DNA of 64,000 nucleotides from Apostichopus japonicus (lineage: Eukaryota; Echinodermata; Holothuroidea; Aspidochirotida; Stichopodidae), in NCBI RefSeq assembly GCF_037975245.1, contig NC_092564.1, positions 8,219,984-8,283,983 of the forward strand, read 5' to 3'. Shown here piece by piece: positions 374 to 38,392 of the stretch. The notes beneath the pieces were generated by a model. That model did not search any database. It had not been told where the DNA came from and worked only from the letters and a program-made list of their open reading frames with translations. Numbering within the stretch: the first letter of the stretch is position 1; every line of letters starts with the position of its first letter. The position numbers and the translations under genes are program-made.

Positions 374-645
374 TTAAGTAACAGAATAGAACATTACTCC
401 CTCACCTCTGGTGTAGTGGTCGTAATGTTCGTCGTAAGTGAAATCATAATTGGGGTCGTCTTTGGTGTGGTCGTAGAGTTGACACCAGTTGTAAAATTTG
501 TCTACGTCGAATGAAAGACAGACGAAAGACGTCTCGGCCTCGCAGAGTCTGCCACATTCCTCTGCTTGTACTGGAGTGTAATAGGCCTGGTACTGATACC
601 TAAGCCCAAACCCTCTCGTCACGTTATAGTGTGATTGGAGGTACT
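374..645 (-). CDS. Last exon of the lectin gene: PAN/apple-like C-terminal module
   Basis: The exon starts after AACAACAG and runs in frame to TAA at 374-376, giving residues 728-817. It contains EECGRLC, then FVCLSF and YNWCQLYD, the C-x3-C ... C ... C spacing of PAN/apple domains, which mediate protein or carbohydrate contacts in many extracellular proteins. The rest is rich in Asp, Tyr and His. NVT near its start is a possible N-glycosylation site. PAN assignment rests on the cysteine pattern only and is moderate. Confidence 0.72.
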
Positions 646-3600
646 CTGTTGTTACCCAAAGAAAGGAAGGAAAGAAAGAAAGAAAGAAGGAAAAAAAAAA
701 CAGAGAAATTAAACTCTCTTCTGAGTTAAAGATGGAACAAATTTTAAGCAGAGGGCAAGTAACAAAGGAAAAACAACGAATTCAAGAAAAGAGATAAGCA
801 CTTGATGACTAATTTAACAGACAAGACAAAACCAGAGGCTCAATCTCTTCCAGTGAACACACTGACACAGGCACCAAACACTTTGAATTTATCACACATC
901 AAATTTTCCAGACTTGAATTCCTCATAACAACCTCTATGATTAAGCTAAAGAGCATAGATTATGAGTTCCTCACTCTCAGGTAAATACTTGAATTTTTTC
1001 ACATTAACAGAAACTGATCAAATATATAGGGGGGGGAGTGACAGGTAATGAATGGCATTTAAATATATGACAATGAATGTAGGTGAAATACCAGGAGCAC
1101 AACCATTATTTCGTTGTGGGATGGGAGGCGGGGGGGGGGGGAGGAGGGCTAAGATGTATTGTCATCTTTGGGAGTGGTCTAGAGGTATCCTCTCTACTTT
1201 GGTAATATGGAGGGTGCTTAGATGCAAACTGGTGCTCTATTTTGCAACTTTTGGAAAAAATGTTGAAGGATTTTCAATTGTTCTGTACAGATATACATGC
1301 TATATATTGTACACTGGAATGTTCTTTCTGTGAGAGGGGTGGGGAGAGAATGAGCTCCCATTGATTTAATTTGGGGGGGGAGGTCTAAAAGTGGTAGGCC
1401 ATTAAAACATTGCCAACAAAAATCCTCATTAATTTTTCTAAGTGGTATTAGTTTTCTTTTTGGTACTGTATCAAGTAAAAAGAAAGCTACAGTAGCCTAT
1501 AGGACTTGTATCTATAAAAATACATTATCCACGTAAGGGTCATTTCAAGTCCTCTGTAACAGCTTCTTTTGCATTTTTCAATACCAACTAGATATGAAGC
1601 TACAAGTTGAGTTGGAAATATAATTATTTGATATTTAAGGATAAAACTGGAAAGACATGTTTTATATTGAGTAATATCATAAACCATAATAAACCCAAAA
1701 GAGGATCATAACTTACCAGAGCCCATGCAAACAAAACTATTATAATCGCTACAACGGTTGTCGTTCCATTTACCAGTGGTAGAAATCATCTCTCCACAGT
1801 CCTCTTCTCCAACATTGTTTGGTTCTCCTATTTTTTTTGAAAGAGAGTTTATTCATGAGTGGAAAGCTAGGGTTAAAGTTGTCAAACACACAGACTTTTT
1901 ACAGAACATTGTGATTGATTTTTTTTGTCGTTCATTTTTGAAACACTCTGCTCTCTACCGACAAATCTGCCCCTCCCACTATGAAAAGAAATCAAACAAA
2001 TAATCATTCCAATCAAAATGAAAAGCACCTCAAAGTCATTACAAATAGATCAACTTATGACAGTGTTGTTTAGCCATTTTCCACGACTCGCAAACCTGCT
2101 AATAACATTGGGAAAACGTTGCGCCCCCTTTCACCTATCACCTGTGGATGCACTGTCTCTTTCAGGAAATTTTGCTGCTTATGCCTATAGGTTTTGCACC
2201 CCAACCTGAGGTCCTGGGCCTTGCACCCTTGGATTTGTATGTTTTTTAGATCCTCCTGCAAGCAGGAACTCGCAAAGAAGCCTCATCAAAGCCACAAGCT
2301 GACCGAAGTCAGTTTCTTAGATTCATATTTAACGTCCATGATAATGAATTGGCAATTGTCAACAACTCTGTAACTGAACGACATACATTAATCTTGGAGT
2401 GACCCGAACTGGGGACCTTATGATTGGAAGTCACCGGCGTCAACTTATGGAAACAGACTTATGGAAACAGACTTATGGAAACAGACTTATGGAAACAGAC
2501 TTATGGAAACAGACTTATGGAAACAGACTTACCACTATTCCAATTCAAGAAATTGACAGCTGAGCCATCAGCCCATTGGAAACCACCCTCGGTATTCTGA
2601 TCGTCTAAACCGATAAACAAAATGAAGGATATTCCACTGCTGTCTATCAGATCCAAAAACATATCTGTTGTGAAGAAATAAAATCAATTTCAAATAAAAA
2701 TGAAAGGTCTGATAAACATGATCAGTGCTTATGAAATCTAAGTTGACATGAGAAATCAGTAAAATGGAATCAGGACAGTAGAGAAATAATATTATAAATA
2801 AAAAATTATATTTATATAGTGCTTAATACAACATTTCAGAGTGCTTTACAAAGTAGGAAAGAGTCAAAGGAAACAAAGGGAAAGTTAGAAACTAGGAATC
2901 AAACAGAAATGTTTGAAGCTGTCTCTTGAAAATAAAGAGGGAGGGAGAGTCACAAACGTAAAATGGGAGTTTGTTCCAAACAGAAGGCGCAGCGACAGAA
3001 AAGGCTTGATCGCCATAACGAGTGCGGGTACGTGGACCAGGAGCTAATTGCAAATGCGCATGATAGGAAGAGCGAAGCGTAACGGTAGTTAACCGAAGCA
3101 AAGATCGGTGGTAAATCAATGTTAGTTGTTTATAGTATGGATGGATAAATGCTAAGAAAACTGATATATAGACATGTCACATTCTTCCTGAGTCAGGATA
3201 GGCCGCGAGGACGATTGTGTCATGAGGGCCCTTTTAGAGTTTGTCTTGTTTCTAATCTGTTTTTTTTCAAGAATACAAAATGCTTCTTCCCATATTTTCC
3301 CAGGCCCCTAATTGCCCCACCCCCAGGGCCCCTCTCATCAGGCTTATCCGGTGTCAGTGAAGATTGTGCTATAAGTAGTGTATTAATGTAAGTCTAACAT
3401 TAGGCTTATTATTACTTGCTACTAAAGCAGTGTGAATAACATCACAGAAATGACTGACGAAGGCCCCTTGTTTGCTATAGGAAAGCTTTTTGTCTTATCG
3501 AACAAGCCGTGGCAAGCTGGATGTTGTATCTAATCCCACGAGTAGTGTTTCGATTTTATTTGATCGAATTCCACGAATAGTGGTTCGATTTTATATGACC

Positions 3601-6600
3601 GTTCGTAGTGAAGTGTGCATGAGTAAAGCAGAGCAGTGCGTAATTTTTCTTAATAACAAGTCTGATGAACTAGGCCAACTAGCATTTCATTGGTCATGGA
3701 ATAATGGTCTTTGATATATTTGAGAAATGAGTCTTACCATGGATAAATTGGTTCTCCGCTAAGCTATGGATACTGCCCAACTCTCCACCTAGCAGTCTGC
3801 ATTCAAGTCTGGCTTCATCATAGTTCATTGCAGCATTGGGATCCATGAAGTAACAGCGGTTGTTATCTTCATTCAGAACCCAGCCCTCACCGCATTCATC
3901 AAAGCCAGGAGCTAGTAGAGAAGATGTAATACCATCAAATCAGGACTATCAATACAACAAGCTGATGAACTCATACATTAAAACTGCATCACTGCTGCTT
4001 TGCCAGACCTGGGTTGGAATAAACACTCAGGTGGCAGCATTTTATATCTAGACCATGTATTCAATTCTTTATGCAGATTTTGTAAATAGAGCCCATAATG
4101 ATACTATTTGTTTCATATGGGTTCATTTGCTATGATTTTCTTTTCATCAACTTTCAAAGCAAGATGTTGATATGCAGCAAATTTGTTTACATGTAAAACA
4201 AGCTTGAAACAGTTTCAATCTGTCCTCTGGTACATATAGGAAATACATACTAGACAAACAATCGTTTTTTAAGCGACTCTCTACATTTACTAGACACTCT
4301 TAGATGTTACTTGACTCTCTATACATGTTACTAGACACCCTATACATGTTACTATACACTCTATATGTACCGCACCACAATTAGAGTAGTGTACATCCGA
4401 ATGGTTAACCGTCAGAGAAAAGAGGTAAAAGTACCTAATATAATGCTTGTTTAAGCATGTTATCAGTTACAACCATTATTTGATCTGCCTTTATATGAAA
4501 GCGCATAAATTTAAAGTACAGATTGTGTGAAAATAGGGAGGATCGAATGTGTTATAAACCATTTTAGAAAATATTTGGTTAAATGTTGATACTACTCCTA
4601 GCGAGCAGATGGAAGGAACGTGCTCCTCTTCTAGCTCAAAATCTAAAAGGTCATGATTTGGAAGTTTGCAAGTGCCATGATTGGCCAAGATCTCAGCTAT
4701 CATGTGGTGGGTAAACTATACCAGTTGAAAACTTCTATCTATGCTTTGGCAAGTCTTGAAAGTGATGAGTTTAGTGTGTAAGTCAATGGAACAATTAATT
4801 GTGGTGCGAGACCTATACATGTCACAAGACACTCTCTACATGTTACTATACACTCTACACTGTTAGGGTTGCCACAGGTAACTTAGTTCAGAAATCTTAC
4901 CATAAAAACACACACACAAACCTACATGTTTGTATTACATTCAGACCGAGGACCCCATTGTATTTTCCATTGTTCAAATCCACGTACCCTAACCTTAACA
5001 ATAACCCATACAATAGAATTCTTCCGAGGACGTGGTGATTCTTTAGAAATCACAACCGAGGACCTAGAATTCTTTTGTTCAAGTCCTCGGTCAGATAGAA
5101 AAACAAACGCATACACCCACACACATGGGATTACTGTTAGGGTTGTTTCAGGTAATCCAGTTTAGAATTCTTACCATAAACACACACACACGCACATTGG
5201 ATTACTGTTAGGATTGCAGACAGCATCATATATGTATATATTTTTTTACTTACGAGGTGTTGGTGGAAGTGTGGTAGGAGGATCAGGCACTGTTGAAGGA
5301 GAAAATTAAAAACAATCTTAAGAAGATAACAAAGGCATCTTCAGAACGAGTAGATCCAATCTACATCAACTGAGCAATTCCATCAACTTACATTAGGATT
5401 CTAGGACTTCTGTTGCCTCATCAGAGTGTATGACTATTAAAGTCACCATGGCTTGTGTTAGAATATCAAACAAGCTACAACAAAAAAATAACACTTAACA
5501 TATAAAACCAATAAGAACGATCAAGCAAACTTGTAAAGAATCGTTTCATTTTTTATGACAAATAATGCAGACAAACATTCATCTTATCTGATTCCACATC
5601 AAGAGCAGTCAGCAATTAACATTCACCAAAAAATAAAGAGAATTAAAAGAAATCAAAGAAATCAAAAGAAATCAAGGGTTAAAATGAAAAACAAAGCAAT
5701 CTAACTAAAGAAATTTGCAGAATGGAAAAGAGCAAAGAAGTTTCTTTGTCAATTGTCCAAAATCTTTTCCAATGTCTGATATTTCCCTGTCAGGTTTCTG
5801 TTATTTATATTTTTTTTAATTATGTAAAATTTTATATTTATATTTATATTCAGAATAAATATGTATGAAAAACACAACACGACCCAACTTTACTCATCCT
5901 CCAACCACAAAAATCAAACAAGATTTGACATCAAAGGTACGCTCTCGCAAAGAATTATTCAAGGCATCACAGTTTCTGTTTGATTTTTGCATAAAAATCA
6001 AATATAAATCTAAATGTCGCCCTCCGACATGCTTGACTGATGTTATTGGAGGGATATCTTATGACAAATAGTTTGCTACTCTGATACAAATTTGGGCACA
6101 TGTTTCTTCCATTCTTCAAACTTTTGGGTCCGACTGGTCGTTTTGTAGAATTGTTTGTTTCTTTCGTTCGTTTCTTCATTCAAGGCACCGAAATATTCAA
6201 TGCAGCTCTAAAGTGGCTTAACACGAAATCATTAAAGCTGTTTGTCAAACTTACATTTTCCTTTCTTGCAGATGTATTTATGTGCATTGGTACACCTGAT
6301 ATCATTCCATGTTCCTAGTTTCCAATATTCTGATTCTAAATGGACACAGTCTTCAAAACTACCCGGAGATGGTTCTCCTGGAGCCCAGTTTGTGAATGAT
6401 GACGAACTGTCAAACTAGATGGCGCAAAACAAAACAAAATTATATTATTATAATGAGACACAGGTAACCCTTAATGGGTGAGAACCAACCATTCGTACTG
6501 TTATAATACAGAGATAGAAGGGAAGGTTGGGGGGGCGGTGAATTTATTCTATCAAAGGGGGTTATAAGCTATGAAAATATGAATTTCTGTTTTTTTGTTC

Positions 6601-9600
6601 GACTTGGTCAAGTCTAATATTGCTTCATTTGCCTCAAGCAAAACACAATCTTCTTTGTTCATAATACAGATATAAGCAGTCCGTATTAATTTATGTAAAT
6701 ATATATATTATTTTCATTGTATGTCAGATGTTTTAAATGAAGAGAAACTGCTCACCAACTGGCCATCTTCCCACACATAATTTCCTTCAAGGGCAATATC
6801 ATTCAGACCAATCCATAAATTTGTCCTGATTGAATCCATGCGAGCTGACAAAATGAAACAGATGAAAATTTGACAATTACTTTAAACCAGTGTGAAACTT
6901 TCCAATAATCATTCAGTTTTTGAGTATAATATATTTTCAGCGTGATCTGAGTTAATATGTTTTTGTAAACAAACTTGTTGAAAGTTTGTAAACTTTGTCA
7001 AGCAGCATACTCCTCCCTAAGTAACTGAATTTAAAAGGAGGCTTGATACAGTTATTAATGCAATTTAATATGAAAGCAGACAATATGCAGATCAGTAGAT
7101 TCAGAGTTCCAGCTAATAATTTTATGATAGTCTCAGCAACAAATCATTTTAGCATCACATCATATCATATTGCATCACTTCAGATTGTACAATTCATACC
7201 ACATTGCATCCACATCATACTACTTGCTTCAAAACACATCTATGCACTTTGAATCATATCACATCACATCATAGCAATTCATTGTAATAACTGCATATCA
7301 TATCACATCATATTTAGTCACATCAGATCACTTCACATCATACCATCTTAAAGTAGAGCTTGAAGCATCATTTTTGGAAATTAAGCTTTATAAATGTCAC
7401 AACTTTTGAAAATTTAAACTATCATGGGAACTAGAATAGATGCAGAAGTATATGCACCCATTTGGTTCACACTGTTTAATCATATTTTGTACGGTTGATA
7501 GAAAATCTTCCAGATTTTCCAATATTGACTGGAAATTCAAGTATCATTTCATAACCTAAAGAGTCATCAATACTCTCTTGATTCATCGGCCTCCACCTTT
7601 ACAAATTTTTACTAAAACAGTGTTCTCCAAAACATAAGGATGACAGCAGTCTGCCAAAGTCATAAAAATAAACCAAACCAGAAAGCACCCCTGATTCGCA
7701 ACAAGCGAAGAAAAACTCAACGTTATTGAAGAGAAAATTGGAGTGTGTTGGCAAGACTAGTTAAACCATAAACTAACTTGTGATAAAAGATTGTTCTTCT
7801 GGTGAGGTGATGGATGTAAGATTAGCATCTACCGCTTCGCACGCTTTGACCGCATCTTCTTGCACCTGGACGTCTTGGCTAAAGTAATAACAAGAGTCTT
7901 TGAAGAGGTTCCAGCCAACCTCACAGCTACCGTATGCTGTACAGGGAAACAATATATTGCCATAGAAGCTGTTCAAAGAGTACTTCAGCAAACCGAGTAG
8001 AAACCGACATTATTTTCATAAATATGTGCATCAATAACTCTTGTGAGAAATTGGTTTCTTTAAAATGAAATAATAATATCTCAATCAAAACAAGTCTGTG
8101 AGAATCTGATTGACTGATGGGATAATTTTAGTGAATTTCCATCAAAAGGCAGAAATGCAAAATGCATTAAGTGTTGATGAGGTAAATTAGCTGAATCATT
8201 TGGGAAGCCACTATCTGAAAATTTGTTAGCAAGGTTTCAACAGTGTGTTTTCTCTGTTGACCACAAATGACCAATAAATTCAACTACAATCAATACAGGG
8301 TGTGCATCATTAGGAAACAACCTCATATAAGGCATGACTTTCTTTCCAACGTTCCCGATTTGAATGATTCTTTTACAAGGTTTGCAGACTTTGACCTCAG
8401 ATGACCTTTGAACTCCAATAGAAAAAAAATATAGCATATTCACTCATGCATCCACAATCTAAAGATGAGATACGTCAAAGGGTCCTTTCTTGTGATTTCA
8501 TGTAAATAAATGCTTCTTGGCATTGAGCTTTGCTGACTTTGACCTTCAAAGACAACAAATTTCATCTAAGCATACAGTCAAATATTGTACCCAAGATATT
8601 GAAGAAATATATATAATAATATGTTAACTAGGTTTTCAGACCTCTGATTACCTCAAATGACCTTCAACCTCAACTAGAAGCACCAGGCTCCATCTAATCA
8701 ATAAAAGGTATCCACTAGCCACAAAAAAAATTATGAGACTTCATCCAAGTTTCCCTCCTTACCCACCCACTCACATACACCCCTACATAACCACTCATAA
8801 TGATTCACACTAAGTGTAGCTATAATATTATTGTTTGTGCTTTTGCATGAATAGTAAATTGTGAACATAAACTGCTAACCTGAGCTCCTAAGTCTAATTT
8901 CTATTATTTTTCTACTCGGATGTTCTTTAATATTATCGATTTTGGCTTCAAAAAATGTGTCAGACAACTTAAACTCAAATAAATTTTTACTTACTGCTAT
9001 CTGGAGAGGAAGGATTTAATGTGGCTCCTGAAAGAAAAAAAGAAAAATAAATGAAACTGATGGTACTTCAAAATTCAGCATCAAATTTGTTGACACAAAA
9101 TGCAACCATTCAGGTTGCAATTAGAACAGTGATGGAAGGACTGAGAGATTTTTGGAGGGTGGTGGGGGGGGGGGGAGAACTTGCGATAAAGAGCTGGTAC
9201 CTTTCATAGGTTTTTTTGCAACTTTTCACCAGATCATCTGAAGTTACTCCAGCAATGTCCTGTACAAAGCCACACAGAATTTTATGTGTGTGGAGAACAC
9301 TTCGTACAAAAGAGTTTCAGAATAAAAGCGGTACAGCGAAAACGTCAACTGAAAAATGTAGTTTTCTCACCTAATGGTGCTTTACAATAAAATGCCTTCA
9401 GACCATAGCAAGTAGTTGTGTCCCATTTGCTATCCGCAAACCCTGTAAAAGAGTACACATAATATACAGAACTTTTATTATCATATGAAAAATGATACAA
9501 ACAAGATGAACCAACTGAAGCATAGAAATATAGATCAAATCAATAAATGATAAAAATGTGGTAAATTTATGGAACCATTTAACAGCTTTTTTAGGTGAGA

Positions 9601-12600
9601 TGCCCCTAGGAATATAATTTATCATTAAGAGGGAGGAGGTTGGGTGGGGGGAGGTGGGCGAAAAGAGTAGGAATGTGTAAGTATGTTTCTTGATAAAATT
9701 ATGTATTTCCTTGTTTGAAATCTAATAAGTGTAAACATATTTTAGAGGCATGAAACGGCTATCACTGAGAAGTATTGCCAATTAAGTGAATTTCATATTG
9801 CACAGGAAAACCACATCAGTATTTTTCAATCAGACTTCTTTGATCCTTACGACTTGGACATCCATTTTCAAACTTCTTAAATTCAGGTATGTTATCAAAC
9901 TTTACGGCATAAACTGGGTCTTTCCACAGTTATTTACCACCGATTCCCCTACTCCCATCGGACACAAGTCATATTCTAATCTCTGTTTACTGTGTTTTTT
10001 TCTACTTAAGACATTTTCTTAACGAATTATCTGATATAAAATAGCACCCGAACGATATAGAACATATACTTCATTTATTAAATTATAAAGAGACAAATGA
10101 CGCATATCCTACCAGTGTAGATTGTGCCGCAGTCCGTTTGGCCTGCTACTAGAGAAGGTTGAGACGGGTTCCAGTTAGTGTACCCATCCACAGCTCCACC
10201 ATGTTCCCAAAGAAGCTGGTCGTCATTGATGAAATCTGAAAAACGAAGGGAAAAAAAAAACATGTTTGCTATTTGACAGAACCACTCTCAAAGTACAGAG
10301 GGACGAAAGTTAAAAACGAAGAAGAGAATACATTGCTTTGAAGATAATTACCACTCTACCCAAATAAAGAAAAGCTTTAAAATCACATGCAACAGAGTTC
10401 CTGTGTTACTAGTGGATCATATCTTAGCTTAGGCTTGATACCAAAAGAATGTATATGGTGTTGTAGCTAATTAAATCTGTTTACTTAAAGTTTCAAATGA
10501 TTAGGTCAAGACATATATATTACTTGATACAGCCAACTTTGGATATAAATAGTTTTCTGGCTATCTGCAGTTAAACGCAACTTCATTAAGTATCAAAACA
10601 GCAAAATGAGTATCAAGTGATCTATCAAGTCAGAGATATGTTTATTATTTGTCACATCAAGACAAACTCAATATCCAGGTTATAGTCAAAACAGATACAA
10701 CCTAAAAAAACCTCCTGTTTTTTTTCATATCCAATAACTTTTCTTCATTGGGATTACATTTGAAAGTTAATTAACCATTTTCACATATCTTATTCGTATT
10801 CGAGTTCTATAAATACCGACAGTAAATTAAAAGTGTAAATTCATAATATTCCAATGATGCTGCATCAGCAAATTAAAGTACTACAATATCTAACAAGAAT
10901 TCCGGGTATTTTTGTTGTTGTTAAGCATAGGGCTCGTTCCAATTCCTCATGATGTAAGATCTAATAATGAACTAAAAAAGCTATAAAGTTATAACCAAAT
11001 TTGGAAGGAGAGTACACTTACCACTGACACCAAGCCACATGCTAAAAAAACCATTAAAATAAAAACTTAAGAGGTTTTCACCAATAAACTGGCTTTCTGC
11101 ATCCCTGTGAAAGGTAAGAAATACAAAATTCAGGATCTTCGATTGGTCTTTGAATATCAATTTACACTTTTTCCTGGAAAGTTCAGATCCAACTTTTTCC
11201 CTCCAAATATCTACTAACTATTAAAACCACCTCGGTACCCTTTGTCTATGCTAAATAATACTCTTAACATTTGCAATTTATCCTTTGTTTATATCAACAG
11301 TTCAACTTGACATGATGCTTATATCAGCAATGATATCTACATTCTCTCTTGGCCCGTAAGTTGGCATTATTTTATGTTATATCAGGAATAGCTAAGCAAA
11401 TTTTCAGAATGTCCTCAATCTGTACCACATCATAACTTCAAACTTGGTGATTGCAGACTGAGTTGAAATAATTTAAGATAGGAGACAGCTTAAAATATTT
11501 GGCAAACTAATGTGATAACCAATGCTTCTCAACAACATTTTGTAGTTGAAGACTGGGACAAATTATTATATTGTTCTAATTCTAATGTTTTGATGGCATG
11601 AAGAAAACATCAGTTTCAGTTCACTGTACAATTCATTAATTGCTTTACTCTGTAAACTAAAACTTTACAGCATCACACTTCACTAGAAGTTTTCAAGTGG
11701 TAAAAACCCTGACAGAATCTAAAGATTGAAGAAAACTTACGATAAAATTGTCAGTAAGTAAGCTCCCTCATTTTCACAGAAGTGTTTAGCATCAGTATAA
11801 GTCTTTGCAACCTTCACAGCCTGATAACAGAAACCATTGAAGTTTTCCCATCCGACTGGACAGAACCCTAATGACAAATAATATTCAGTTAATCAATCAA
11901 TCCATTGATGTAAATCAATTAATCATTTACTAACAGTAAAAGGAAGAGTAAAACTAGTCAGATAATTGTCTGTTGCAGATTTGTTAAGACCAACCATTTA
12001 TTTAAAGGGTGTGAAGACTCGCGTCAAAAGAAATGCCGGTGATCTGACCTAGTTTCGAATGAGGTGTAACAGAAGTGTTAGACACCACCATCGATCCCAG
12101 AAAATACACACACAGCTTGCTACCGTTGGTAATTAGACACTAGTGTGCAGTCAGTACATACAGCTGTGGTCAATACCCACAGCACAGTGTACAAACGATA
12201 CAGCGATGGACATCTTAGGTCTAGCTAAAGATAAGAAGGTATCACGTTTCATTACTGTCTGCATTTCGTAGCGACAAGCAACGGAAAGTTAACTTTTTAA
12301 AGATGGCGGCACGCTGTTTGAGGCGAGTCTTCAATGCCTTTAATGGCTCAGTTGCTTTTGCAAGAACTACATCAATAGCAACAGACTAGGAAAGCTCGAC
12401 AACCATCAACATTGTCACTGCCCATATGCAATGATGAATTATATAATTATTATGAAATATCCTAGATGTCAATAACTGATGCAAGATGCAGGACTCAGCT
12501 GTGGGTGGTCATTTAAGTTAGTTTAAGTCTCATATCCTGCTAACTTCCTGTCAGAGTTCAAGTCCTACTTTTGTCTTCTTGTCCTTCTTCTTGTCCTACA

Positions 12601-15600
12601 GATTTCTTGTCCTACTTGTCCTACTTTTCCCTGGACCTACTTGCTATCTGTCTCTGTTGTCATGCCTATTTTGATCGTCTTTGAAAACTGATACTCCACC
12701 ACAAACTGGTCAAGAAAATGCTAAAAAAGCATTATTTTGTAACTCTGCTAACTTTCATTTTCTCTTTTATCTGTTCTTGCCAGCTATTTTGAAATACCAA
12801 ATACTGTAAAGCAATGTTTTTTAGAACCTGACTACAATTATTTTTTGATACACAGACTTTCACTGAAAATGTCATCATTATTGGCCCCCAAGGATTTAGC
12901 ATTGCTTTAAACTTGCTACAAGTTAGCAAAAGAACTTTACTAGAGGTTCTGATCCTTCAAATTGTTACCAGCCATTGAGGATTATTAACATAGATAATTA
13001 ACTATATCATTGTGGATAACAATATTGTATAGATAATTAACTATATCATTGTTGAAAACTTCCGTTTAAAGGTTCAGTATAATTGATTGTTGAATATTCA
13101 GCATGGTTGACCATTATTTGATTTTTTGGCATATTTGGGGGCAAAATTGATGACCTTTGAAGGGTGAACTTATAATACTGATCTTTAAAGCAAGATATGG
13201 GATGTTTGTTTTCTAAAACCATATTAATTTTCAAAACAAACCTGGATCCTTTTCACAAAGAAAGTAATGCTTTGAAGAACATGCATCTGTGCTCCAGTTG
13301 CCGTTAGCAACACGATTAAGCCCAATCTGAACACAATTTGCACCATCACTGTCCCAGAAACTGTTGATGAGAGGAGGGAAGAGCAATATTGTGTGATTAG
13401 TGTTTTAATATGGAAGAAAAACATCACTTCAAACAGAGACATAAATATCTGTAATAATGCAACATGAACGATCAGTGTGCTGTGCAATTGGTGTTATGAA
13501 TAATGCTGTTAGAGTGATATAAGTATCTTTCGTGAAGAGGGGAGGATGTAGAGATCATAGTCTAGTTCTCTCTAGTTTCCACCATTCAACCCTTTCACAT
13601 GTGTTGCATACCAGTACATTCCAATCATAGTAATTAATTAGTGATATGTACAGTATACTTACCTGTAGACACACACCTTGCATATATATTCTAGTATAGT
13701 GTCATTGTTACTTACCTGTAGGTAAATACCTTACAGTCCTGTATAAATGCTTTAGGTATTGTTTTCTTTATAGTTGTTTCTAGGGTGGACCTTCCTGCAT
13801 GTAAAGGACTCCTTATGTTTTGATTGGTTACTGTTTTTGTATTATCATTTTGATTGGTTGAAACACTGATGACCAGCCTGTGCATCAGGTTCTAGTAAAT
13901 AGTGTTATAGAAAATTCAGCAGAGTAGCACAGAACCCCAGAGTTTTCCAACTCGGTCTCTACAATGGCGCTTAATGAATATCATTCAAAACATTGTTTAT
14001 TATGCAACGCAAGACTGATATATTTTGTTTGAATCATTTTCAACACAGTATCGGTTATACAGTAAAAAAAAAAGCATCGTTATTAGATTTGGTGTATGGA
14101 TAGTATGAAATCAAAATTAGTTGAAAACAATACAACTAACTTACTACATGTTCACAAGTGAAGTAGGGAAAATAACAATTAAACATCTCTATGGGGGCTC
14201 TTCATCAAATCCCAAAATGAATTTGACTTTAGCAAAGAATTTGTGATCCTCTTTCAAGTTTATGGCAATAAAAAATGTAATAAATAACAAATCCACTGAT
14301 TTAACCAGTTGTTCTAGGGTGATTTTATAACAGAAAAGATGCAAAATAAAACTAACAAGATTTATTAATGCATAGCTAAATTTTTTAACATTAATAAATG
14401 AATCTGGAAATATATACTGACCTTAAAATTCAACAACTTGATGAAGTGAAGTTAAAGACATACCTTACATCTGGCTGATTTAAGCCCCAATTTTGGAAAG
14501 TTAAAGTGGTATCTGGGTCGGCCCACTGGAACGCACCCTTCGATGAATACTGTGGGGATTAAATCGATCGTAACAGGTATTTTAATCCTTGAAATAGTTA
14601 CACAGATTGTGGTTTCGGATACTGACTGTGATTTCTGCTACCGTTAAGTACAGTACTAAAGTAATCAAGTATCAACCTTGCAGATTTTTTCACAAATTAG
14701 CACTTCAAATTACAAGATCAATTTAAACTGGTAAGAAAATGAATACAACAGAAAAGGAAAAAGGAACAAAGTTTTCACAAGGGCCGTTACCTTAACTATT
14801 AAAACTCTAACTACCAGATGTGAAAAGCTATAGAAACCTGCATGTGGATCGTGATTACTTAATGAGAGTAAAAATTGTGTTCTCCTCGTTTGTGAGAGCT
14901 TAACGAGGGAACCGAGAGACAAAATTCACATACTGAACATTGATAACTAGAATCAAGAAAAAAACCACCCTGATATTAAGCCCAGTATTTCCTACCTGGT
15001 CTGTGAGTCCGATCCAGAATGGTAATCCCTCAAAGGCCTGAATATTTTGTACAAATTTCTGTTCTGTTTCATCGCCGATGGAAACAACATGGCCGCCAAA
15101 CTGCGTGCAGACCTGCTCGGCATCTTCATATTTTTCTCGATCTACTCCCGACCACCAATAACATCTGTCGTTGTACTCATGCCAGCCGTTGTTGGCATCA
15201 CACTTGAGTGGTGCATCTGCCCAAAACAGGATCAATCACGATCGATTAAAATGGATGCCATTTATATCAAAATTTAAAATCAACAAGGGCAAATTTAGTG
15301 GCAGAAATGTTTTTTTATATATATATTTTTTCATCTTCAATCCGGAATTGTTTGCATCGTAAAACAACGAAGTAAGTATAAACCAATCATATATTGTTTG
15401 GGTGTGATTCACCAACATCCGTACTTCTAACCCCATCTCACTCATCCAATTCATACTACCCTTAAAACGCTAATATCACTAACTATTCCACTGTTCACAA
15501 TTTCCTGGAATGATCTTGAAGAAAGAAAATCTGCCCAACAGCTCCCAACATATCATTCACTTGAAAACAAAATGCAATGCAAAACTATTTTTTGCTCCAC

Positions 15601-18600
15601 AATTATTAATGCAAAGAAAGCAAACTTTTTGTCACTGAAAGGTGAACATCTCGTTTGATAACCTCATTTGACATAATGACATACTTAGTCTCCGCTCGCA
15701 AACAAATCCGTTGAGGTCGACGCAAGTTTCATCGTTCCACTTTCCAGTATCACTGCTTAATTCACCGCAGTCTTCGCCCGGTAACTCTGCATTATTAGGT
15801 TCACCATTTCTGAAGTTTCTGTGCATTACCGAAAAACAAAAATAAAAATACAATCGAGAGAATAAAATACGTAGATCCCCTGAAAAAAGACTATCTACAA
15901 ACCTGCTAGTTGCTTGTTCCCAGAACAAATCCTATAGAGTTAATTGAACAGTTGAGACAATCCTCTGTTAGAGTTCCCGTAAGTCCTTGTTACCCTGGGT
16001 ATTATGAAGACTTTGAGGCATTCTCTTTTCATAAATACTAACATCTTTAGGGGCAAGCTTTAACTTCAACAGAGATACCACTGTAAGTAGCATTTGCCTA
16101 GGGAGTATCTAAGTTTTATACATAGATAGACACTTTATTCTCATAGGGAGTATCTAAGTTTTATACATAGACACTTTATTCTTAATAGGGATATATTAGT
16201 TTTATACATAGACACTTGATTCATAACGGGAGTATCTAAGTTTTATAAATAGACACTTTATTCTTAATAGGGAGTATCTAAGTTTTATACATAGACACTT
16301 TATTCTTAATAGGGAGTATCTAAGTTTTATACATAGACACTTTATTCTTAATAAGGAGTATCTAAGTTTTATACATAGACACTTTATTCTTATAGGGAGT
16401 ATCTAAGTTTTATACATAGACACTTTATTCTTAATAGGGAGTATCTAAGTTTTATACATAGACACTTTAATTTTAATAGGGAGTATCTAAGTTTTATACA
16501 TAGGCACTTTATTCTTAATAAGGAGTATCTAAGTTTTATACATAGACACTTTATTCTTATAGGGAGTATCTAAGTTTTATACATAGACACTTTATTCTTA
16601 ATAGGGAGTATCTAAGTTTTATACATAGACACTTTATTCATAAAGGGAGTATATAAGTTTTATAAATAGACACTTTATTCTTAATAGGGAGTATCTAAGT
16701 TTTATACATAGACACTTTATTCTTAATAAGGAGTATCTAAGTTTTATACATAGACACTTTATTCTTTTAGGGAGTATCTTAGTTTTAATCATGGACACTA
16801 TATTCTGATAGGGAATATCTTCGGTTTATAAAATCACTTACGCATATCCTGTTGCAGTGAGGTAAGTGTTGTCCACCCAAACAAACTGCCCTTCATCACT
16901 GGTATCATGAAGGCCAATCCAATAGAACTTCCCTCCTCCGGAGACTTGCGTTTGTATATAATTCTGTCAAGAGAAAAACAAAATCTAAACAAATCTTTTA
17001 CAGCAAGAAAGACATTTGGAGATATTTAAAACATGCAAACTACATGAAGAGCTGACATTATTTTGAAAACGGGCAAGAAATATGTGCCACTTGTCGGCTG
17101 GTGGTCTTGGGGTGGAGGGAGGAGAGGGGTGGGGGAAGGGAGGAGAACATGTGAGTTAACTTTAAAGGGCAAGATGGCATATTTAGATTTTCAAAGGACA
17201 CCAATGCCACAGCTTCCTCTGTTTGCCCAAAAAGAACAAAGAAAAAATTGAAGCAGAAAATAATTATGTTAGCATTATAAACAGTGTATCAAACCAAATT
17301 TCATCTAATTTAGCTGTTTTTGTGATTAATAATGGATTTCTCCTCTTGTAAACCCTAAGAATGTGATCAAGGTGAATGAGTAAAGAGGAACTGTTTCCAT
17401 GAAGGCTTTAAGAGTAACCGAAGGGTGGTATCATGTCATCATGAACATCTGTGAGTACGAGCAAAGGATGTTATCAGAACTTGATAATAATTCTCATTTT
17501 TTTCAAATTAGACAAAAAACATGTCAATATGGTAGCACAATGGTCCCCCAAAAAATGGCTGAAGAAAAGAGCATAATTAGACCGTTAAGTTGCTCAATGG
17601 AATTTTGGGAAGTTTTAATAGTCTGTTTGGAGGAGAGTACCATTTTACTGTTGTTTATTCTAAACCAACAGATGGTCATTTATATCTCTTGGCCAGTAGT
17701 GCACACCCTAATTCTTGTATGCCTAACAATTCCCATACAGTATTGCCCTTTGGCTTAAATGCATTTGCTCAGAATCCCTCAATAACCGTCTTACAGAATA
17801 CAAAACTTATTTGGTCGGTAGGGGTGATGATTCAGAGTTCATAAAATCTCTAGTAGATTTATAACTCTACACTTCCCAACTGGAAGAAGATGATTATCCA
17901 CAGGAACATCCATCTGTTGCATACAGTCGCTCCCTAAATTTTTATGAAGGCTAAATTCTCCCAGAATTCCATCTTTATTGGCATTCAGAAGACCTAAATC
18001 TTTAAAGGAACATCTGCAACATACTACAAAGAATAACTTTAGTACATCTAATCAGGACAATTTAGTAGTAGGTTGTTACAAGTGTAATAGAACAAAATGT
18101 GAGGTTTTTTTTCTTAATTTTCTAGTAGCTAATACTCCTTTCCAGAGTGCCAGTACATGCATTTCATACGCTACAGTATATATGCTGTTTCTTTTCTTGA
18201 CACTAAAAGTAAACAAATTTAGAAAGATCATCTTACATTTTCTGCTTGTGAAGTGATTATGACTAGGTCCGATATGGAGTCGATACACCGCTGACGGGCC
18301 AACCTCCATCCAATTCTTTCATTCCGAAAAAGGTAACATGAGCCTTGAAATTCCTGCCATTCTCCACCACATTCCTGACAATGTCCTGAAGAGTGACAAA
18401 GAAAAAGGTTACAATTAAGCATTTGCATTTAATTTGAAAAAAAAAGAGGATGAAGGTCAAATGCCCAACTTTAGAATATCTTATCCAGAAAAAATGGCTT
18501 TGTACAATACAATTCAAGAAAATTATTAATGGGATCTGGGGAAAGGCGGGGGCATCTCCTCAAAAATTTGGGTTGTCTGGTCATCTTCCAGGGGCTGTTT

Positions 18601-21600
18601 GTTTCCTATTCTAGCCTGTAAAAGGTTGTAACACACCTTGAGATATGTTTAACAGCTCACAGTTAATCATAGAATTAATTCCTGCATGGGTCAGCAATTA
18701 CTGTCACACTTAGTTAACCATTCTTTCTGTTTGATGTTGAAAAACGTCAGACGCTGGGTCCGATCTTCCCTTGATCCTGGTCTATAGAGGGGTCCAAATC
18801 AGGTTGTCTGACCCTCAATTACACTACAAATTGGACCCAGGGCCTGGGAAACCATGCTCTCCCTCATGAAAAAACAGGGCTTTAAATTAGTAGTGGAAGA
18901 TTCTTAAACTAATAAACCTGTACGATTAAACATTTAGACATAGCTATAGACTGGGTGATATAGACTGGGTTTCTTTGGCTTGGCCTATTTTCAGTCGGCC
19001 TAGTAATTTGAGGCACGGAAGGATACCATTGTAAATATGATATGATATGCTTTTGTGTGGTTTAATTAAGTAGAACAAACTTAATTATATCATCACCATC
19101 ATGTATACTTGGGTATTAAAGACTTTACAACAACTTATCAAAACATGATAGCAATGCTTGCCAGTTCAAAGTTTTTTTTCCAGTTTGATTAACATAGTTG
19201 GCCAACTACAGTTAATTATAATCACTAAATATAGTAAAATATCAACACATTTTCAAACAAAGGTACACAATGTATCACATCCCCTGGTTATCTTCAAATT
19301 TAATAGGCAGTGTTACATGAGTGTCAACAATATCTTGCTGGGTAACAACAAGTACTTTGTATCCAAGATCATAATCAAAGTTAACTTACAACTGTTTGTT
19401 TTCTTCTATTAAAGTTTTATATCATTTGCTCACAACACACTATGAACATGTAATTAGAAGTGAGGACCTTCTTAATTCTCAAAGTGAAAGATGCAGTTAA
19501 CTAAACACAACTTACATTGAAACTGAATGTACCTTCTACATCAATCAGACATCAATGGAAACTGCATTTAGAGTATACTCTCAAATTGATTTCTTGAGCA
19601 ATGTTAACGTACAGTAGCCGAACTGGTCACCACTACACACCGATTGTGTTGTTACAATTCCGATTGTGTTAAGGACATCTTTTAGTTATATTGAATTAAA
19701 AGGTGTGAAGACTCACGCCAAAAAACCTGTCTTATGCCGGTAATTTGACCTAGTTTCGAATGAGGTGTAACAGAAGTGTTAAACACCACCATCGATCCCA
19801 GAAAATACACACACACAGCTTGCTACCGTCGGTAATTAGACACTAGTGTACAGTCAGTACATAACAGCTGCGGCCAATACCCACAACACAGTGTACAAAC
19901 GATACAGCGATGGACAACTCATGTCCAGCTTAAAATAACAAGGTATCACGTTTATTACTGTCTGCATTTTGTAGTAACACGAACAAAACGTCACTTGCAA
20001 GCAACATAAAGTTAACTTTTTCAGATGGCCACACACAGTTTGGGGCGATTCAATGTGATGTCATCCTGCCAGCCATAAACAACATCTCATTCAAGATGAT
20101 CGGCATGTACTAGTTTCCATGATAAGAAACAAAATTAGCTTGCAGAATGGATGTTTTGTTTGGTGTATTAGTTTCAATCGATCACATTAAGGGTTTTGCA
20201 CTTTGAGCATACAATGATCATGTTTATATATTGCTGTACCTGTGATACCTGATAGCCACATACTGTAAGCTAACCAACAGGACTGTTAAACAAAATGAGT
20301 ATAAACGAAAGGACATGATTACGCCTACCAATGTTACATGTCTGCCCCCCACACATGCCATCCCTACAACTTAATCACATGTTAGCAAGCTACTATAGGT
20401 ATAAGTAAGGCTCGTCATAAACATTTTGGAAATTACTCTGACACGGAAATTCACAAGATGTTATCTCATCGAAACTAGGAACCTATCCATCGATCACCCA
20501 TTGATCTACATGTACTTTTCTGGTTCTGGTTTTGTAGAGCAAAGAAGTTATTTAGTAGAAAATCTTAATTATTATTATCTTCAGCATATAATATATAAAA
20601 TGAAATAATTTCTATCACCTTGTGAAAGATCCTACTATATAGTGCAAAATATATGTTTAATTGTGCCTTGTAGTAAAGGTTGAAATATGCAGTAATTAGT
20701 AGACAAGTGTAAAAGATATGAATAATATTATAAGTTCATGGAAGTTTTTATCCTTGGAATCCATATCTAGAATTATACATTAAGTAATACAGAATCACTA
20801 AATTACTTTTAACCTGGTAGATTAGAAAACATAATAAACTGCGCTAATAGCATACCAAAATCTATCTAACACAAACAGAAGCTCTTATAATTACATCGTT
20901 ATCTTTCCTTTAGGATTTCAAAGTTTATTTAAGTCCCTAGTAAGCAAGCAGTTATTTGATACAATAAGATTGTGGAACACATTTGGTTTGAGACTTTGTG
21001 ATCTTAGAGATCTTCATCGAAACGTGTGTGTGTGTATTTGGGTGATCAAGGCCATCGTGCCAACAGGCTGTAATCTGTTGAACAAATGTTTCTTTATAAT
21101 GTCTCCCAAAAAAGTTAATCAAAGCGACTCATGGAAGGTTTCCTGGCATTCAAGATTTGTAAAAAATTGAAAAACTAGAAAAATGTTTGCAACTTAATAG
21201 TTTTGGAGTTTTACCACTACTTCACACCTTTGAAAACTCAGTCCAACAAACCTGTAAAATACATCGGTTTTCAGGCACATTTAAAATGATTTCTAATTCA
21301 TAATGGTCGATATTTCAACATCTCATTGGCTCATTTCTGGCTTTATAGAAAAGGAAAGAATTCCAAGTGGCTTCGAGGTACTACACAGACCTATCACCAA
21401 CTACATATATAAAGCGGTCAAAACGATGGCATTCCCTCCTCGTAAATTTACAACAACAATGCATAGGAATGGGTGTTGTGCAAGAAGGGAAGTGGATCTT
21501 CTGTGTTAACAATGGTTAAAATATACAGCTCAAATCTATTGAAAGGAGCTCTGATGTTTTAATCGAAGGTACAAGTTCCCAGTGTCGGTCAGCAACTATC

Positions 21601-23282
21601 CCTTTTACCATTTCCTCATCCCCCCTTACCCACTTCTGACCACTCCAGTATCAACATTTTAACCTGCAGAGCTTTCTTTAGTTAGACACTAAAATCATTG
21701 AGGAATTAATAACAACTGCAAGGTTACAATTCACTTTACACTCATTATCATTTACACAAAACTCCTTTAAAATGATTTAAAGACCTACTAAGATCTCTTA
21801 TGTATAACTTGCAGATTGAGACTGCATCTTACCATTCATTAATTGACTCTTCTCCTCGTTTAGCCCTCTGTATCATAAATCACATCATTAATAACCAAGG
21901 GCGTAGGAACCGGGGGGGCTGGGGGGCACCAGCCCCCCCCAGTGAAAAATGTGGAGGGGCGGAAGTATCATTCCGCCCCCCCGCTCCGCAAGTCAGAAAA
22001 CCCCTTTTTCATTTCCAAATGAGAAAAAAATCTCATTTGGAGCACCAAATTGCATCTAAGGCCAGGTGAAAATACAAAATTAAGTTTACAAAATGGAGTG
22101 GGTATTGAAGTGTGCTATATTGCACCAAATTGCATCTGAGGCCACCTGGAAATGCAAAAAATTCCAAAGGGGAGGGGGACACCCCCTCCCCTTAGACCCC
22201 TCCCCCAGGCCGGCCATCAGTCTTCAGCCCCCCACTCAAAAGTACCTTCCTACGCCACTGTTAATAACTGCCACGGCATGCACAATACCAGTATAATTTT
22301 CAATGATTGTTTCGATTCGACATTGCTATTAGCATGAAAATTGAACAAATATCCTCCTCAACTTCCAAACCCCACCCCTCCCCTTTGCTGCCTCCCTATG
22401 TTTTCTTCTTTCATGATTTGCGAACGGATTAACGACATGCATCGATCACTAACTACTTTTGACATATTAATGAGTACTTTTTTCCGAGTCATGACAGTTC
22501 ACTGTACAAACTAACCATAAAAATATTTTCATGTCAATAGGTAACAAATTTTCATTCCCCAAATTGGTATGTATGTAATCCTCCCCACCCCTCCATCCCC
22601 CTCCGACCCATTAGCAGAACAAACTGTTTGGTGATTTCCTATGCACCCAATATACAGATGCATATTGTTACGTTGTGTGGGGTAATAAGTTCAAGACAGT
22701 GTCATTCGTTGTTTTTCTTCCTTTATTTTTCAGGCTCCACATAACGCCACTGCTTCCTTTCACAATTAACTAACATCGATTCTCCATTAACAACCTCTGC
22801 TACCTTGCAACACTATCCCTGCTATCCTCACACACTCCCTCCGCTTCTCTCCTTTTCTCGTCTCTCCCTAATACCTTGGCTCCTCACCTCACAAAAGCCA
22901 GTCCAACTGCTCTAAACCCCTCTCCTCATCTCTAGCTCTATCCTTTAATCATATTAGCAAGTCTTTACATGTCTAAGTAATCCCAGCTTTGTAATCCCCT
23001 TAAGCTATCCCTAGGACATAAGCAGCTTTCTTCTCCTTACTTGCAGACTTCACAACACATATGAAACATCATGGAGACCCCAAATTGTAACAAACTATAC
23101 ATAAAAAGTTTTCACAGCAACAACAATAAATTTTTGTCTCGATACTGTAAAATGCAATGGCATATGTGCTAACCATGCAGACAACATTTCAACTGTTTCT
23201 TAGCATTAAGAGAAAACTTTGGAAACTTACCTAACTTTGCGGCCAGTAATGTGACTGCTATAATGACGAGGTAAAGCTTCAT
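374..23282 (-). CDS. Secreted protein with five C-type lectin domains and a C-terminal PAN/apple module (20 exons)
   Basis: Exons (plus coordinates, transcription order): 23231-23282, 18237-18385, 16842-16963, 15685-15818, 14996-15216, 14464-14549, 13242-13360, 11741-11867, 11022-11104, 10113-10235, 9371-9442, 8995-9027, 7778-7936, 6756-6844, 6255-6414, 5254-5289, 3738-3911, 2533-2664, 1717-1827, 374-645. All junctions are GT-AG and sum to 2454 nt, 817 codons plus stop, with no frame break. Order: signal peptide, CTLD1 (~18-152), CTLD2 (153-294), CTLD3 (295-429), linker, CTLD4 (441-576), linker, CTLD5 (589-727), PAN-like (728-817). No transmembrane segment follows, so I infer secretion. It resembles mannose-receptor-like lectins in domain stacking but has no fibronectin-2 or ricin domain. 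Every module boundary is a phase-1 intron, as expected for exon shuffling. Likely role: multivalent glycan binding, perhaps in immunity. A different first exon or alternative splicing cannot be excluded. Confidence 0.9.
1717..5289 (-). CDS. Lectin linker 2 and CTLD5 (exons 16-19), EPN/WND type
   Basis: Exon 5254-5289 is a 36-nt Pro/Thr linker (PDPPTTLPPTP) between phase-1 introns. Exons 3738-3911, 2533-2664 and 1717-1827 encode CTLD5: CGEGWVLNEDNNRCYF, LFIGLDD in place of WIGL, NWNSGEPNN with EPN at 692-694, WND at 711-713 and SFVCM. Both calcium-site motifs are intact, so mannose-type binding is predicted. The donor of exon 18 at 2532 abuts a 14-bp tandem repeat made of copies of the donor region itself. 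Confidence 0.88.
2443..2532 (-). repeat. 14-bp tandem repeat overlapping the exon 18 donor
   Basis: Six perfect 14-bp units (2443-2526, plus strand acttatggaaacag) run directly into the real donor of lectin exon 18. On the transcribed strand the donor reads GTAAGTCTGTTTCC and each later unit reads ATAAGTCTGTTTCC, so the array consists of copies of the donor context in which GT has become AT. Confidence 0.9.
2790..3125 (-). mobile_element. 3' end of a CR1/L2-like non-LTR retrotransposon
   Basis: On the minus strand 2892-3119 encodes RYGDQAFSVAAPSVWNKLP followed by FKRQLQTFLF, the typical C-terminal tail of reverse-transcriptase polyproteins in CR1/L2-like LINEs. It is followed by the usual short 3' UTR with AAAGCACT and TATATAAATATA-like end repeats. 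The copy is truncated at its 5' side and lies in the intron between lectin exons 17 and 18. Confidence 0.75.
4250..5215. repeat. Intronic tract of local duplications (CTLD5 intron)
   Basis: Degenerate direct repeats of an ACTCTCTACATGTTACTA-like unit fill 4275-4365 and recur at 4818-4860. A block reading ctgttagggttg...caggtaa...cttaccataaa...cacacac occurs at about 4860-4917 and again at 5135-5190. An inverted decamer gaccgaggac (4944-4953) / gtcctcggtc (5083-5092) frames part of it. No coding signal is seen. Confidence 0.6.
6255..9027 (-). CDS. Lectin linker 1 and CTLD4 (exons 12-15), EPS/WND type
   Basis: Exon 8995-9027 is a 33-nt cassette (about residues 430-440) rich in Ser/Pro/Thr, a probable flexible and O-glycosylatable spacer flanked by phase-1 introns, so it could be skipped without a frameshift. 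Exons 7778-7936, 6756-6844 and 6255-6414 encode CTLD4: SCEVGWNLFKDSCYYF, LWIGLND, NWAPGEPS with EPS at 537-539, WND at 559-561 and YICKK. EPS is a conservative variant of EPN and WND is intact, so calcium binding is plausible. NLT near the start is a possible N-glycosylation site. The exon 15 acceptor was set at ATCTAG because it keeps FDSSSSF in frame. Confidence 0.87.
7130..7345. repeat. Degenerate CATCATATCA-type simple repeat
   Basis: The stretch is dominated by loosely repeated atcacatcat / catatcacat words in the intron between lectin exons 13 and 14. It looks like a decayed microsatellite. Confidence 0.7.
7937..8994. repeat. Lectin intron 12 with repeated TGACCT words
   Basis: No exon is seen. 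Around 8385-8690 the words tttgacct, atgacctttgaac and tttgaccttcaa recur at irregular spacing (about 8391, 8401, 8530, 8659). A similar pair (tttgacctttgaccttgc) lies at 45357-45375, so this is probably a dispersed repeat family. Confidence 0.4.
9371..11867 (-). CDS. Lectin CTLD3 (exons 8-11), non-canonical sugar motif
   Basis: Exons 11741-11867, 11022-11104, 10113-10235 and 9371-9442 encode residues ~295-429. It opens FCPVGWENFNGFCY and shows MWLGVSD in place of the usual WIGL, then TNWNPSQPS with QPS at 390-392 and KWDTTTC where WND is expected, and ends FYCKAP. Neither EPN nor QPD is intact and WND is WDT, so canonical calcium-dependent sugar binding is unlikely; a structural or protein-binding role is possible. 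It is the only domain split over four exons, with internal phases 2, 1, 1. Confidence 0.87.
12008..12330 (+). repeat. Dispersed ~330-bp repeat, copy 1
   Basis: Runs from ggtgtgaagactcgcg to about gatggcggcacgctgtttg. It shares long blocks with copy 2 at 19702-20050, including tagtttcgaatgaggtgt, aacagaagtgtta and gtacaaacgatacagcga. It has no open frame and no clear inverted ends, so it is probably a SINE or MITE of unknown class. It lies in the intron between lectin exons 7 and 8. Confidence 0.8.
12331..13241. other. Intronic AT-rich sequence before lectin exon 7
   Basis: No gene seen. It contains a short tandem duplication in which agataattaactatatcat occurs at about 12992 and again at about 13032. 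Confidence 0.5.
13242..15216 (-). CDS. Lectin CTLD2 (exons 5-7), QPD type with degenerate WND
   Basis: Exons 14996-15216, 14464-14549 and 13242-13360 encode residues ~153-294. The domain opens GWHEYNDRCYWW, has FWIGLTD, then NWGLNQPD with QPD at 251-253, the position where EPN sits in CTLD1, and ends with NWSTDAC and FLCEK. QPD is the known galactose-type motif, but the WND triplet is replaced by WST (277-279), removing two calcium ligands, so binding may be weakened or calcium-independent. Intron phases inside the domain (0 then 2) match CTLD1, which suggests these two arose from one tandem duplication. NWS at 276-278 is a possible N-glycosylation site. Confidence 0.88.
15685..18385 (-). CDS. 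Lectin CTLD1 (exons 2-4), EPN/WND type
   Basis: Three exons (18237-18385, 16842-16963, 15685-15818) encode one long-form C-type lectin domain, residues ~18-152. Visible marks are an N-terminal Cys pair (HCQEC), the FQGSCY start, the WIGL core (YWIGLHD), EPN at 114-116 and WND at 135-137, and the terminal cysteines (EDC, ETC, FVC). EPN with WND is the known calcium-2 site signature of mannose/GlcNAc-type binding, so this domain is predicted to be active. Internal introns are phase 0 and phase 2. The intron between exons 3 and 4 holds a 42-bp minisatellite. Confidence 0.9.
16098..16815. repeat. 42-bp minisatellite, about 17 copies
   Basis: A unit of about 42 bp, beginning gggagtatctaagttttata and ending cactttattcttaata, repeats about 17 times with few substitutions and small indels. 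There are no unique spacers. It fills much of the intron between exons 3 and 4 of the lectin gene and stops about 26 bp short of the exon 3 donor at 16841. Confidence 0.95.
19702..20050 (+). repeat. Dispersed ~330-bp repeat, copy 2
   Basis: Same orientation as copy 1 at 12008-12330, with substitutions and small indels spread throughout (for example an extra block aaaacgtcacttgcaagc near 19985). Both copies lie in introns of the lectin gene, antisense to it. Confidence 0.8.
21896..22260. mobile_element. Non-autonomous hAT-type element (MITE)
   Basis: Ends are caagggcgtaggaa and, inverted, cagtggcgtaggaa (12 of 14 match), the CAGNG-type ends of hAT transposons. They are flanked by a perfect 8-bp direct repeat ttaataac (21888-21895 and 22261-22268), the known hAT target duplication length. 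The 365-bp body is a G/C-run palindrome plus two diverged copies of a segment containing gcaccaaattgcatct. It has no transposase. Related sequence occurs at 42837-43392 and near 63700. Confidence 0.85.
23231..23282 (-). CDS. Exon 1: start codon and signal peptide of the lectin gene
   Basis: The exon encodes MKLYLVIIAVTLLAAKL plus one base of the next codon, then a GTAAGT donor. A lysine followed by a hydrophobic run of about 13 residues is a classic secretory signal. The frame stays open upstream to another ATG at 23358-23360, but a good acceptor (TTAACACAG) lies 8 bases before the chosen ATG, so the upstream stretch is probably intronic and a 5' UTR exon lies further up. The following intron is about 4.8 kb, the longest in the gene. 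Confidence 0.85.
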
Positions 23283-28714: not shown

Positions 28715-29104
28715 AGGGGAACATGGGGTTAAAACAGACCTCCCGGGGTATAACAGAACCCTCTCACTATATGGAAAACCCAATACCACCATTTAGTTTT
28801 GACTCAATATATTAGAGCCTTACAATGTGACTATTGCAACACACAAAGGATGTTTACCGCAAGCAAAATTCCAGCTATCCTATCTTGAGTATGTGAGGTT
28901 TTCATTATTTTACAGAAGCTATACACGTTTTTATAAAACTAATTGGCTTTATATTCGCAAACAGAGAAGTAACTGACAATATAGTTATGTTTGATGTCTA
29001 CTTAGAATAACAGGCTGCAACCTATAGTGAATGTACAGTAGCAACAGTAATGCATACAGGGTAAAACAGAACCCTTGAATTGGGTCCAAACGGACCCCGG
29101 GTTC
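28715..29104 (+). mobile_element. Left end of a second pogo-like element copy
   Basis: The sequence matches the left 430 bp of the complete element at 30053 nearly throughout (ggggaacatggggt, attggctttatattc, gaagtaactgacaatatag) and is preceded by TA. It stops abruptly after ggaccccgggttc, where LINE sequence begins. No matching right end for this copy is visible. Confidence 0.82.
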
Positions 29105-30050: not shown

Positions 30051-30052
30051 TA

Positions 30053-33440: not shown

Positions 33441-33442
33441 TA

Positions 33443-35360: not shown

Positions 35361-35433
35361 TGAGTGTGAGGTTGTACTACCTCTATAGACGATCACCAAA
35401 GAGGTGGCGTAGCTGAAAGCCGTTGCCAAGATT

Positions 35434-38390: not shown

Positions 38391-38392
38391 AG

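What the first reader, a model, noticed from the sequence alone, without database searches (positions are those of the whole stretch)
374..23282. Five-lectin-domain protein with a different sugar motif in almost every domain
Seen: one gene, one frame, five CTLDs with motifs EPN/WND, QPD/WST, QPS/WDT, EPS/WND, EPN/WND, then a PAN-like end. Known: EPN marks mannose-type and QPD galactose-type calcium sites, and WND supplies calcium ligands. Inference: active outer domains flank degenerate inner ones, so the protein could read a composite glycan pattern or use the middle domains for protein contacts. I do not know of a named family with exactly this order.
Basis: partly seen in the sequence, partly recalled or inferred. 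Interest (0 to 1): 0.7.

Follow-up and report, generated by a model that had tools for sequence, protein, structure and literature searches.

The report
Ordinary tandem C-type lectin gene
This is a spliced animal gene for a protein with five lectin domains in a row, three of which look able to bind mannose-like sugars; tandem lectins with a different motif in each domain are already described in invertebrates, so it is ordinary.

Summary
The motifs read as stated. By Ca2+-site residues domains 1 and 5 (EPN/E/WND) and also domain 4 (EPS/E/WND) look competent; EPS occurs in DCIR, reported to bind fucose and mannose, and in human CL-10. Only domains 2 and 3 have lost most ligands, so 'active outer, degenerate inner' fails, and QPD in domain 2 does not imply galactose binding. 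Whether the gene ends at 374 is open: an in-phase donor directly follows the PAN domain, but poly(A)-like signals also follow the stop. Most likely a recognition lectin working by multivalent mannose-type binding. Mixed motifs in tandem CRDs are already described (AiCTL-9, CfLec-4, ScCTL-1, Cnlec-1). No animal collection was at hand, so whether this exact domain order is new was not tested.

The parts
23231..23282 (-). exon 1: start codon and signal-like peptide MKLYLVIIAVTLLAAKL, donor phase 1
   Evidence: highest of 3 signal-like ATG + phase-1-donor hits on both strands of the whole window, the other two overlapping each other at 5229/5226
15685..18385 (-). CTLD1 (exons 18385-18237, 16963-16842, 15818-15685), EPN / GEDC / WND, 5 of 5 site-2 ligand positions
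   Evidence: Pfam Lectin_C 8.3e-23; alignment; exons
13242..15216 (-). CTLD2 (exons 15216-14996, 14549-14464, 13360-13242), QPD / GANC / WST, three of five ligand positions lost
   Evidence: Lectin_C 5.5e-21; alignment; exons
9371..11867 (-). CTLD3 (exons 11867-11741, 11104-11022, 10235-10113, 9442-9371), QPS / QTDC / WDT, ligand set lost
   Evidence: Lectin_C 8.6e-15; alignment; exons
8995..9027 (-). 33-nt mini-exon, linker about GATLNPSSPDS, phase 1 on both sides
   Evidence: mini-exon scan; with the next mini-exon it brings the length to 817 aa
6255..7936 (-). CTLD4 (exons 7936-7778, 6844-6756, 6414-6255), EPS / FEDC / WND, 4 of 5 ligand positions
   Evidence: Lectin_C 3.5e-22; alignment; exons
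5254..5289 (-). 36-nt mini-exon, proline/threonine linker PDPPTTLPPTP, phase 1 on both sides
1717..3911 (-). CTLD5 (exons 3911-3738, 2664-2533, 1827-1717), EPN / EEDC / WND, 5 of 5 ligand positions
   Evidence: Lectin_C 4.5e-21; alignment; exons
406..645 (-). PAN_1 domain exon, 240 nt, phase 1 on both sides if the donor at 405 is used
   Evidence: Pfam PAN_1 4.1e-6, 27.0 bits; donor GTGAGGGA
374..405 (-). either the end of the coding sequence (GEGVMFYSVT and TAA) or the start of an intron
   Evidence: not settled

Best explanation
A metazoan lectin of the tandem-CTLD kind. It is secreted, or is the outer part of a longer receptor whose 3' exons lie past the window's left edge. Domains 1, 4 and 5 each hold a Ca2+ in site 2 and bind the vicinal hydroxyls of mannose/fucose/GlcNAc-type sugars. 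Weak single-site binding is raised to useful strength by three such sites on one chain, spaced by domains 2 and 3 (fold kept, ligand site lost) and by two flexible linkers on either side of domain 4. The PAN domain would make a protein or second glycan contact. Likely role: recognition of microbial or self high-mannose surfaces, then agglutination, opsonisation or uptake. Shown: gene model (by sequence only), domains, residues. Inferred: Ca2+ and sugar binding, avidity, PAN contact, role.
For: 20-exon model in one frame. Pfam 5x Lectin_C + PAN_1. Site residues. The 11 best of the 60 solved sequences shown (203 matched) for the CTLD array are long tandem-CTLD receptors: IgY receptor 2.2e-68, PLA2R 1.6e-67, Ly75 1.1e-64, MRC1 6.9e-41, MRC2 8e-35 for the best chain of each. 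Among single-CTLD chains CTLD1 is closest to DC-SIGNR and DC-SIGN, and CTLD5 to DC-SIGN, then macrophage mannose receptor and, lower, MBP-C. EPS in DCIR with reported fucose/mannose binding. The 4-CRD scallop lectin CfLec-4 binds several microbial ligands through its separate CRDs, two of them opsonic, as a review reports.
Against: No expression, binding or orthologue data. [quoted passage not shown] For a membrane receptor there is no separate transmembrane stretch in the part seen: the only 19-aa windows at or above 1.3 on the Kyte-Doolittle scale are the signal peptide (up to 1.65) and one inside CTLD5 (1.75 at aa 648-666).
Confidence: 0.7

Rival explanations
1. A composite-pattern reader: the different motifs let each domain read a different sugar, including galactose at domain 2, so the protein recognises a mixed glycan.
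For: Motifs differ between domains; a review of bivalve lectins argues this for tandem lectins with mixed motifs.
Against: Domain 2 has QPD but A, S and T at the other three ligand positions, and domain 3 reads Q, S, T, D, T, so neither should hold Ca2+ in the usual way; the three competent domains are all of mannose type. The same review warns that motif and specificity do not always agree.
Confidence: 0.12
2. A longer endocytic or scavenger membrane receptor: exons past the window edge add further domains and a membrane anchor. (Compatible with the best explanation; it differs on where the gene ends.)
For: The PAN_1 match ends at residue 80 of its 90-aa piece, which is the last residue before a phase-1 donor at 405. 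8 of 8 domain or linker boundaries are phase-1 introns, so a phase-1 donor there fits the pattern.
Against: 5 of the 11 introns inside domains are phase 1 too (13 of 19 in all), so the pattern is less striking than it sounds. TAA comes 10 codons on. On the minus strand one AATAAA (249-254) and two ATTAAA lie within 374 bases after it, against about 0.5 and 0.3 expected from their density in 1-23282. No further mini-exon was found in bases 5-405. In the 794-aa scan the PAN match stopped one residue earlier.
Confidence: 0.4
3. More than one gene: CTLD5+PAN has its own start in the intron before exon 17.
For: A second signal-like ATG with a phase-1 donor lies at 5229-5175 (a nested one at 5226), upstream of CTLD5.
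Against: Markov simulation gives a mean of 0.5 hits per strand of this length, with 1 to 3 hits in 8 of 20 runs. The linker mini-exon at 5289-5254 fits a joined gene.
Confidence: 0.08

Closest known systems
Tandem-CRD lectins of bivalves (AiCTL-9, Cnlec-1, CfLec-3, CfLec-4, ScCTL-1)
   Same: Several CTLDs in one chain with different motif pairs between CRDs; low identity between domains (23-33% in AiCTL-9; 22-42% here)
   Different: Three or four CRDs, and no PAN domain mentioned in the passages read; here five CRDs, WND kept in three, linker mini-exons and PAN
Mannose receptor family (group VI: MRC1, MRC2, PLA2R, Ly75)
   Same: Best solved-sequence matches; an array in which only some CTLDs bind sugar (in MRC1 the central two of eight)
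   Different: No R-type or FNII domain in the model, five CTLDs rather than eight or more in the part seen, a PAN domain, no separate membrane segment seen
DCIR (CLEC4A) and human CL-10
   Same: EPS in place of EPN, as in domain 4
   Different: One CTLD per chain (recalled), not a tandem array

Membership tests
C-type lectin-like domain superfamily | CTLD signature (Pfam Lectin_C above cut-off) | tested here: met
   5 of 5 domains
C-type lectin-like domain superfamily | conserved disulphide cysteines (six in a long-form domain, recalled) | tested here: met
   7, 6, 6, 6, 6 cysteines per domain; pairing not tested
Ca2+-dependent mannose-type lectin | site-2 ligands E, N, E, N, D (positions recalled from mannose-binding protein) | tested here: met
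   domains 1 and 5 have 5 of 5, domain 4 has 4 of 5 (N to S); domains 2 and 3 fail
Ca2+-dependent mannose-type lectin | Ca2+-dependent sugar binding | not testable with these tools
   needs protein
Galactose-type (QPD) lectin, domain 2 | QPD together with the E, N, D ligands | tested here: not met
   QPD present, the other three are A, S, T
Mannose receptor family (group VI) | N-terminal R-type domain and FNII before the CTLDs | tested here: not met
   signal exon splices in phase to CTLD1; none seen by eye in intron 1 peptides of 22 or 25 aa and more; Pfam was not run on intron 1, so a missed exon there is possible
Mannose receptor family (group VI) | eight or more CTLDs and a membrane anchor | tested here: inconclusive
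   five CTLDs, no separate anchor in the part seen; the gene may run off the window
PAN/Apple domain | Pfam PAN_1 above cut-off | tested here: met
   27.0 against 21.4 bits, 4.1e-6 alone; 22.5 bits, 1e-4 in the 794-aa chain. No PDB sequence match up to E 10; fold prediction too poor to use

The most novel reading that the evidence does not exclude
A previously unnamed architecture (signal peptide, five CTLDs with competent sites in 1, 4 and 5 and lost sites in 2 and 3, two linkers, PAN) in which the lost-site domains have become protein-binding modules, so that one chain couples mannose recognition to a protein partner.
Probability: 0.12. Interest if true: 0.35.

Novelty: new member of a known kind. 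Interest (0 to 1): 0.12.

Why it matters
If right it adds one more tandem lectin in which sugar binding is kept in some domains and lost in others, with an exon map in which each domain or linker is a phase-1 module, as expected of arrays built by domain shuffling. It does not change what is known of the family.

Tried and rejected
Galactose reading of domain 2: rejected on missing ligands. My recollection that CL-K1 carries EPS: a term search of the CL-K1 paper found no such term and another paper gives EPN for human CL-11 and EPS for human CL-10, so dropped. First exon table had exon ends off by one and did not translate; corrected. First full model lacked two mini-exons (794 aa); added after the scan. 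A third mini-exon candidate, 1013-975 (SVNVKKFKYLPE), was left out as a judgement: it has no linker-like content, and the plus-strand control gave one phase-1 hit (four over three phases). Signal-like start at 5229: within chance. PAN structure prediction: mean pLDDT 39.8, not taken to fold search. Rfam: 0 matches at gathering scores. ARAGORN: 0 tRNA genes.

Papers. 'five CRDs' + C-type lectin + invertebrate: 0 papers. PAN or apple domain with C-type lectin: 20 of 28 listed, 15 of 103, 15 of 390, 3 of 3; no title or abstract start names this architecture. Of those listed I looked only at passages of PMC514892 and PMC10140915. So absence from print is not claimed. A term search of PMC5794833 found nothing.

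The species was not identified: no whole genome is held. By their descriptions the sequence collections hold prokaryotes, viruses, phages, plasmids and metagenomes; I ran no search for relatives in them.

Full report
Observation. The region 374-23282 holds one minus-strand gene. From peptide anchors I listed acceptors and donors around each exon, built an 18-exon model of 794 aa, and after a scan for phase-compatible mini-exons added two of 33 and 36 nt. The two mini-exons encode ATLNPSSPDS and PDPPTTLPPTP. Their linker-like content and pyrimidine tracts support them, but the scan's chance level is not zero: three candidates in 20,524 intron bases, against one phase-1 candidate (four over three phases) on the opposite strand. 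No RNA was available.

Domains. Run singly against Pfam, the five CTLDs give Lectin_C at 8.3e-23, 5.5e-21, 8.6e-15, 3.5e-22 and 4.5e-21, and the last piece PAN_1 at 4.1e-6 (27.0 bits against a cut-off of 21.4). These searches used the 794-aa version and its pieces. Pairwise identity of the five CTLDs is 22 to 42%, with domains 1 and 5 the closest pair at 42.2%.

Sugar site. The alignment gives, for the five positions that hold the site-2 Ca2+ in mannose-binding protein (positions recalled): domain 1 E N E N D; domain 2 Q D A S T; domain 3 Q S T D T; domain 4 E S E N D; domain 5 E N E N D. So three domains look competent and two do not. EPS is not in itself a sign of loss: DCIR carries it and has been reported to bind fucose and mannose (PMC3679074, passages); human CL-10 carries it (PMC12077231, passage); a mosquito lectin with EPS and WND was predicted by its authors to be mannose-specific (PMC4223726, passages).

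Exon plan and the end of the gene. All 8 domain or linker boundaries are phase-1 introns (exons 1, 4, 7, 11, 12, 15, 16 and 19 end in phase 1). The 11 introns inside domains use all three phases, but 5 of these are phase 1 as well, so 13 of 19 in all. The PAN_1 match covers residues 7-80 of the 90-aa piece, and residue 80 is the last before an in-phase donor GTGAGGGA at 405. If it is used, the PAN exon is itself a phase-1 module and the gene goes on past base 1. If not, the chain adds GEGVMFYSVT and stops at 374; in favour of that, one AATAAA and two ATTAAA follow on the minus strand within bases 1-405. I leave this open.

Relatives. By sequence, the 11 best solved relatives of the CTLD array are chains of yolk sac IgY receptor, PLA2R, Ly75, MRC1 and MRC2 (203 sequences matched, 60 shown). 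[quoted passage not shown] It is not filed as a mannose receptor: the R-type and FNII domains are missing from the model, and no separate membrane segment is seen. In MRC1 too neutral oligosaccharides are bound by the central two of eight CTLDs (PMC7949135, passages).

Known pattern. A review of bivalve C-type lectins (PMC12842671, passages only) lists AiCTL-9 (YPT, EPD, EPN, QPN), CfLec-4, CfLec-3, ScCTL-1 and Cnlec-1 as proteins whose domains carry different motif pairs, and reports that the single CRDs of CfLec-4 differ in the microbial ligands they bind. I did not find the five-CTLD plus PAN order named, but the library is open-access only, I looked at listings for the most part, and no animal protein collection was at hand, so this says little.

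Alternatives. A second gene start before CTLD5 was looked for: one signal-like candidate exists at 5229-5175 (with a nested ATG at 5226), against a simulated mean of 0.5 hits per strand of that length in 20 simulations, so it is not evidence.

Verdict. Real, correctly read, ordinary. Interest 0.12.

Noticed in passing
16099-16820: 42-bp minisatellite, about 17 copies, 91% matches, inside the intron between exons 3 and 4 of the lectin gene.
   Followed up: partly
2443-2531: 14-bp perfect tandem array, 6.4 copies, that begins two bases inside the intron after exon 18 (exon end 2533), so it includes part of that donor site.
   Followed up: no
28886-43253: A stretch dense in mobile elements: Tc5-type HTH and DDE_1 transposase pieces (31092-32091), an Exo_endo_phos piece below its cut-off (29511-30002) and a hAT dimerisation piece (39861-40187), with direct repeats.
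   Followed up: partly
47225-53648, minus strand: Pieces that look like RNF113: a CCCH zinc finger at 49156-49482 (Pfam zf-CCCH 7e-10) and RING-like pieces at 48220-48357 and 47225-47392 judged by eye; the gene name is recalled.
   Followed up: partly
55744-56022, plus strand: A cysteine-rich peptide that resembles NDUFA8; name recalled, not searched.
   Followed up: no
26132-26321 and 25443-25515: 22-bp tandem array, with inverted copies about 0.6-0.7 kb away.
   Followed up: no
12033-12249 and 19734-19953: Two copies of a dispersed repeat (89-96% alike in three pieces) in introns of the lectin gene.
   Followed up: no
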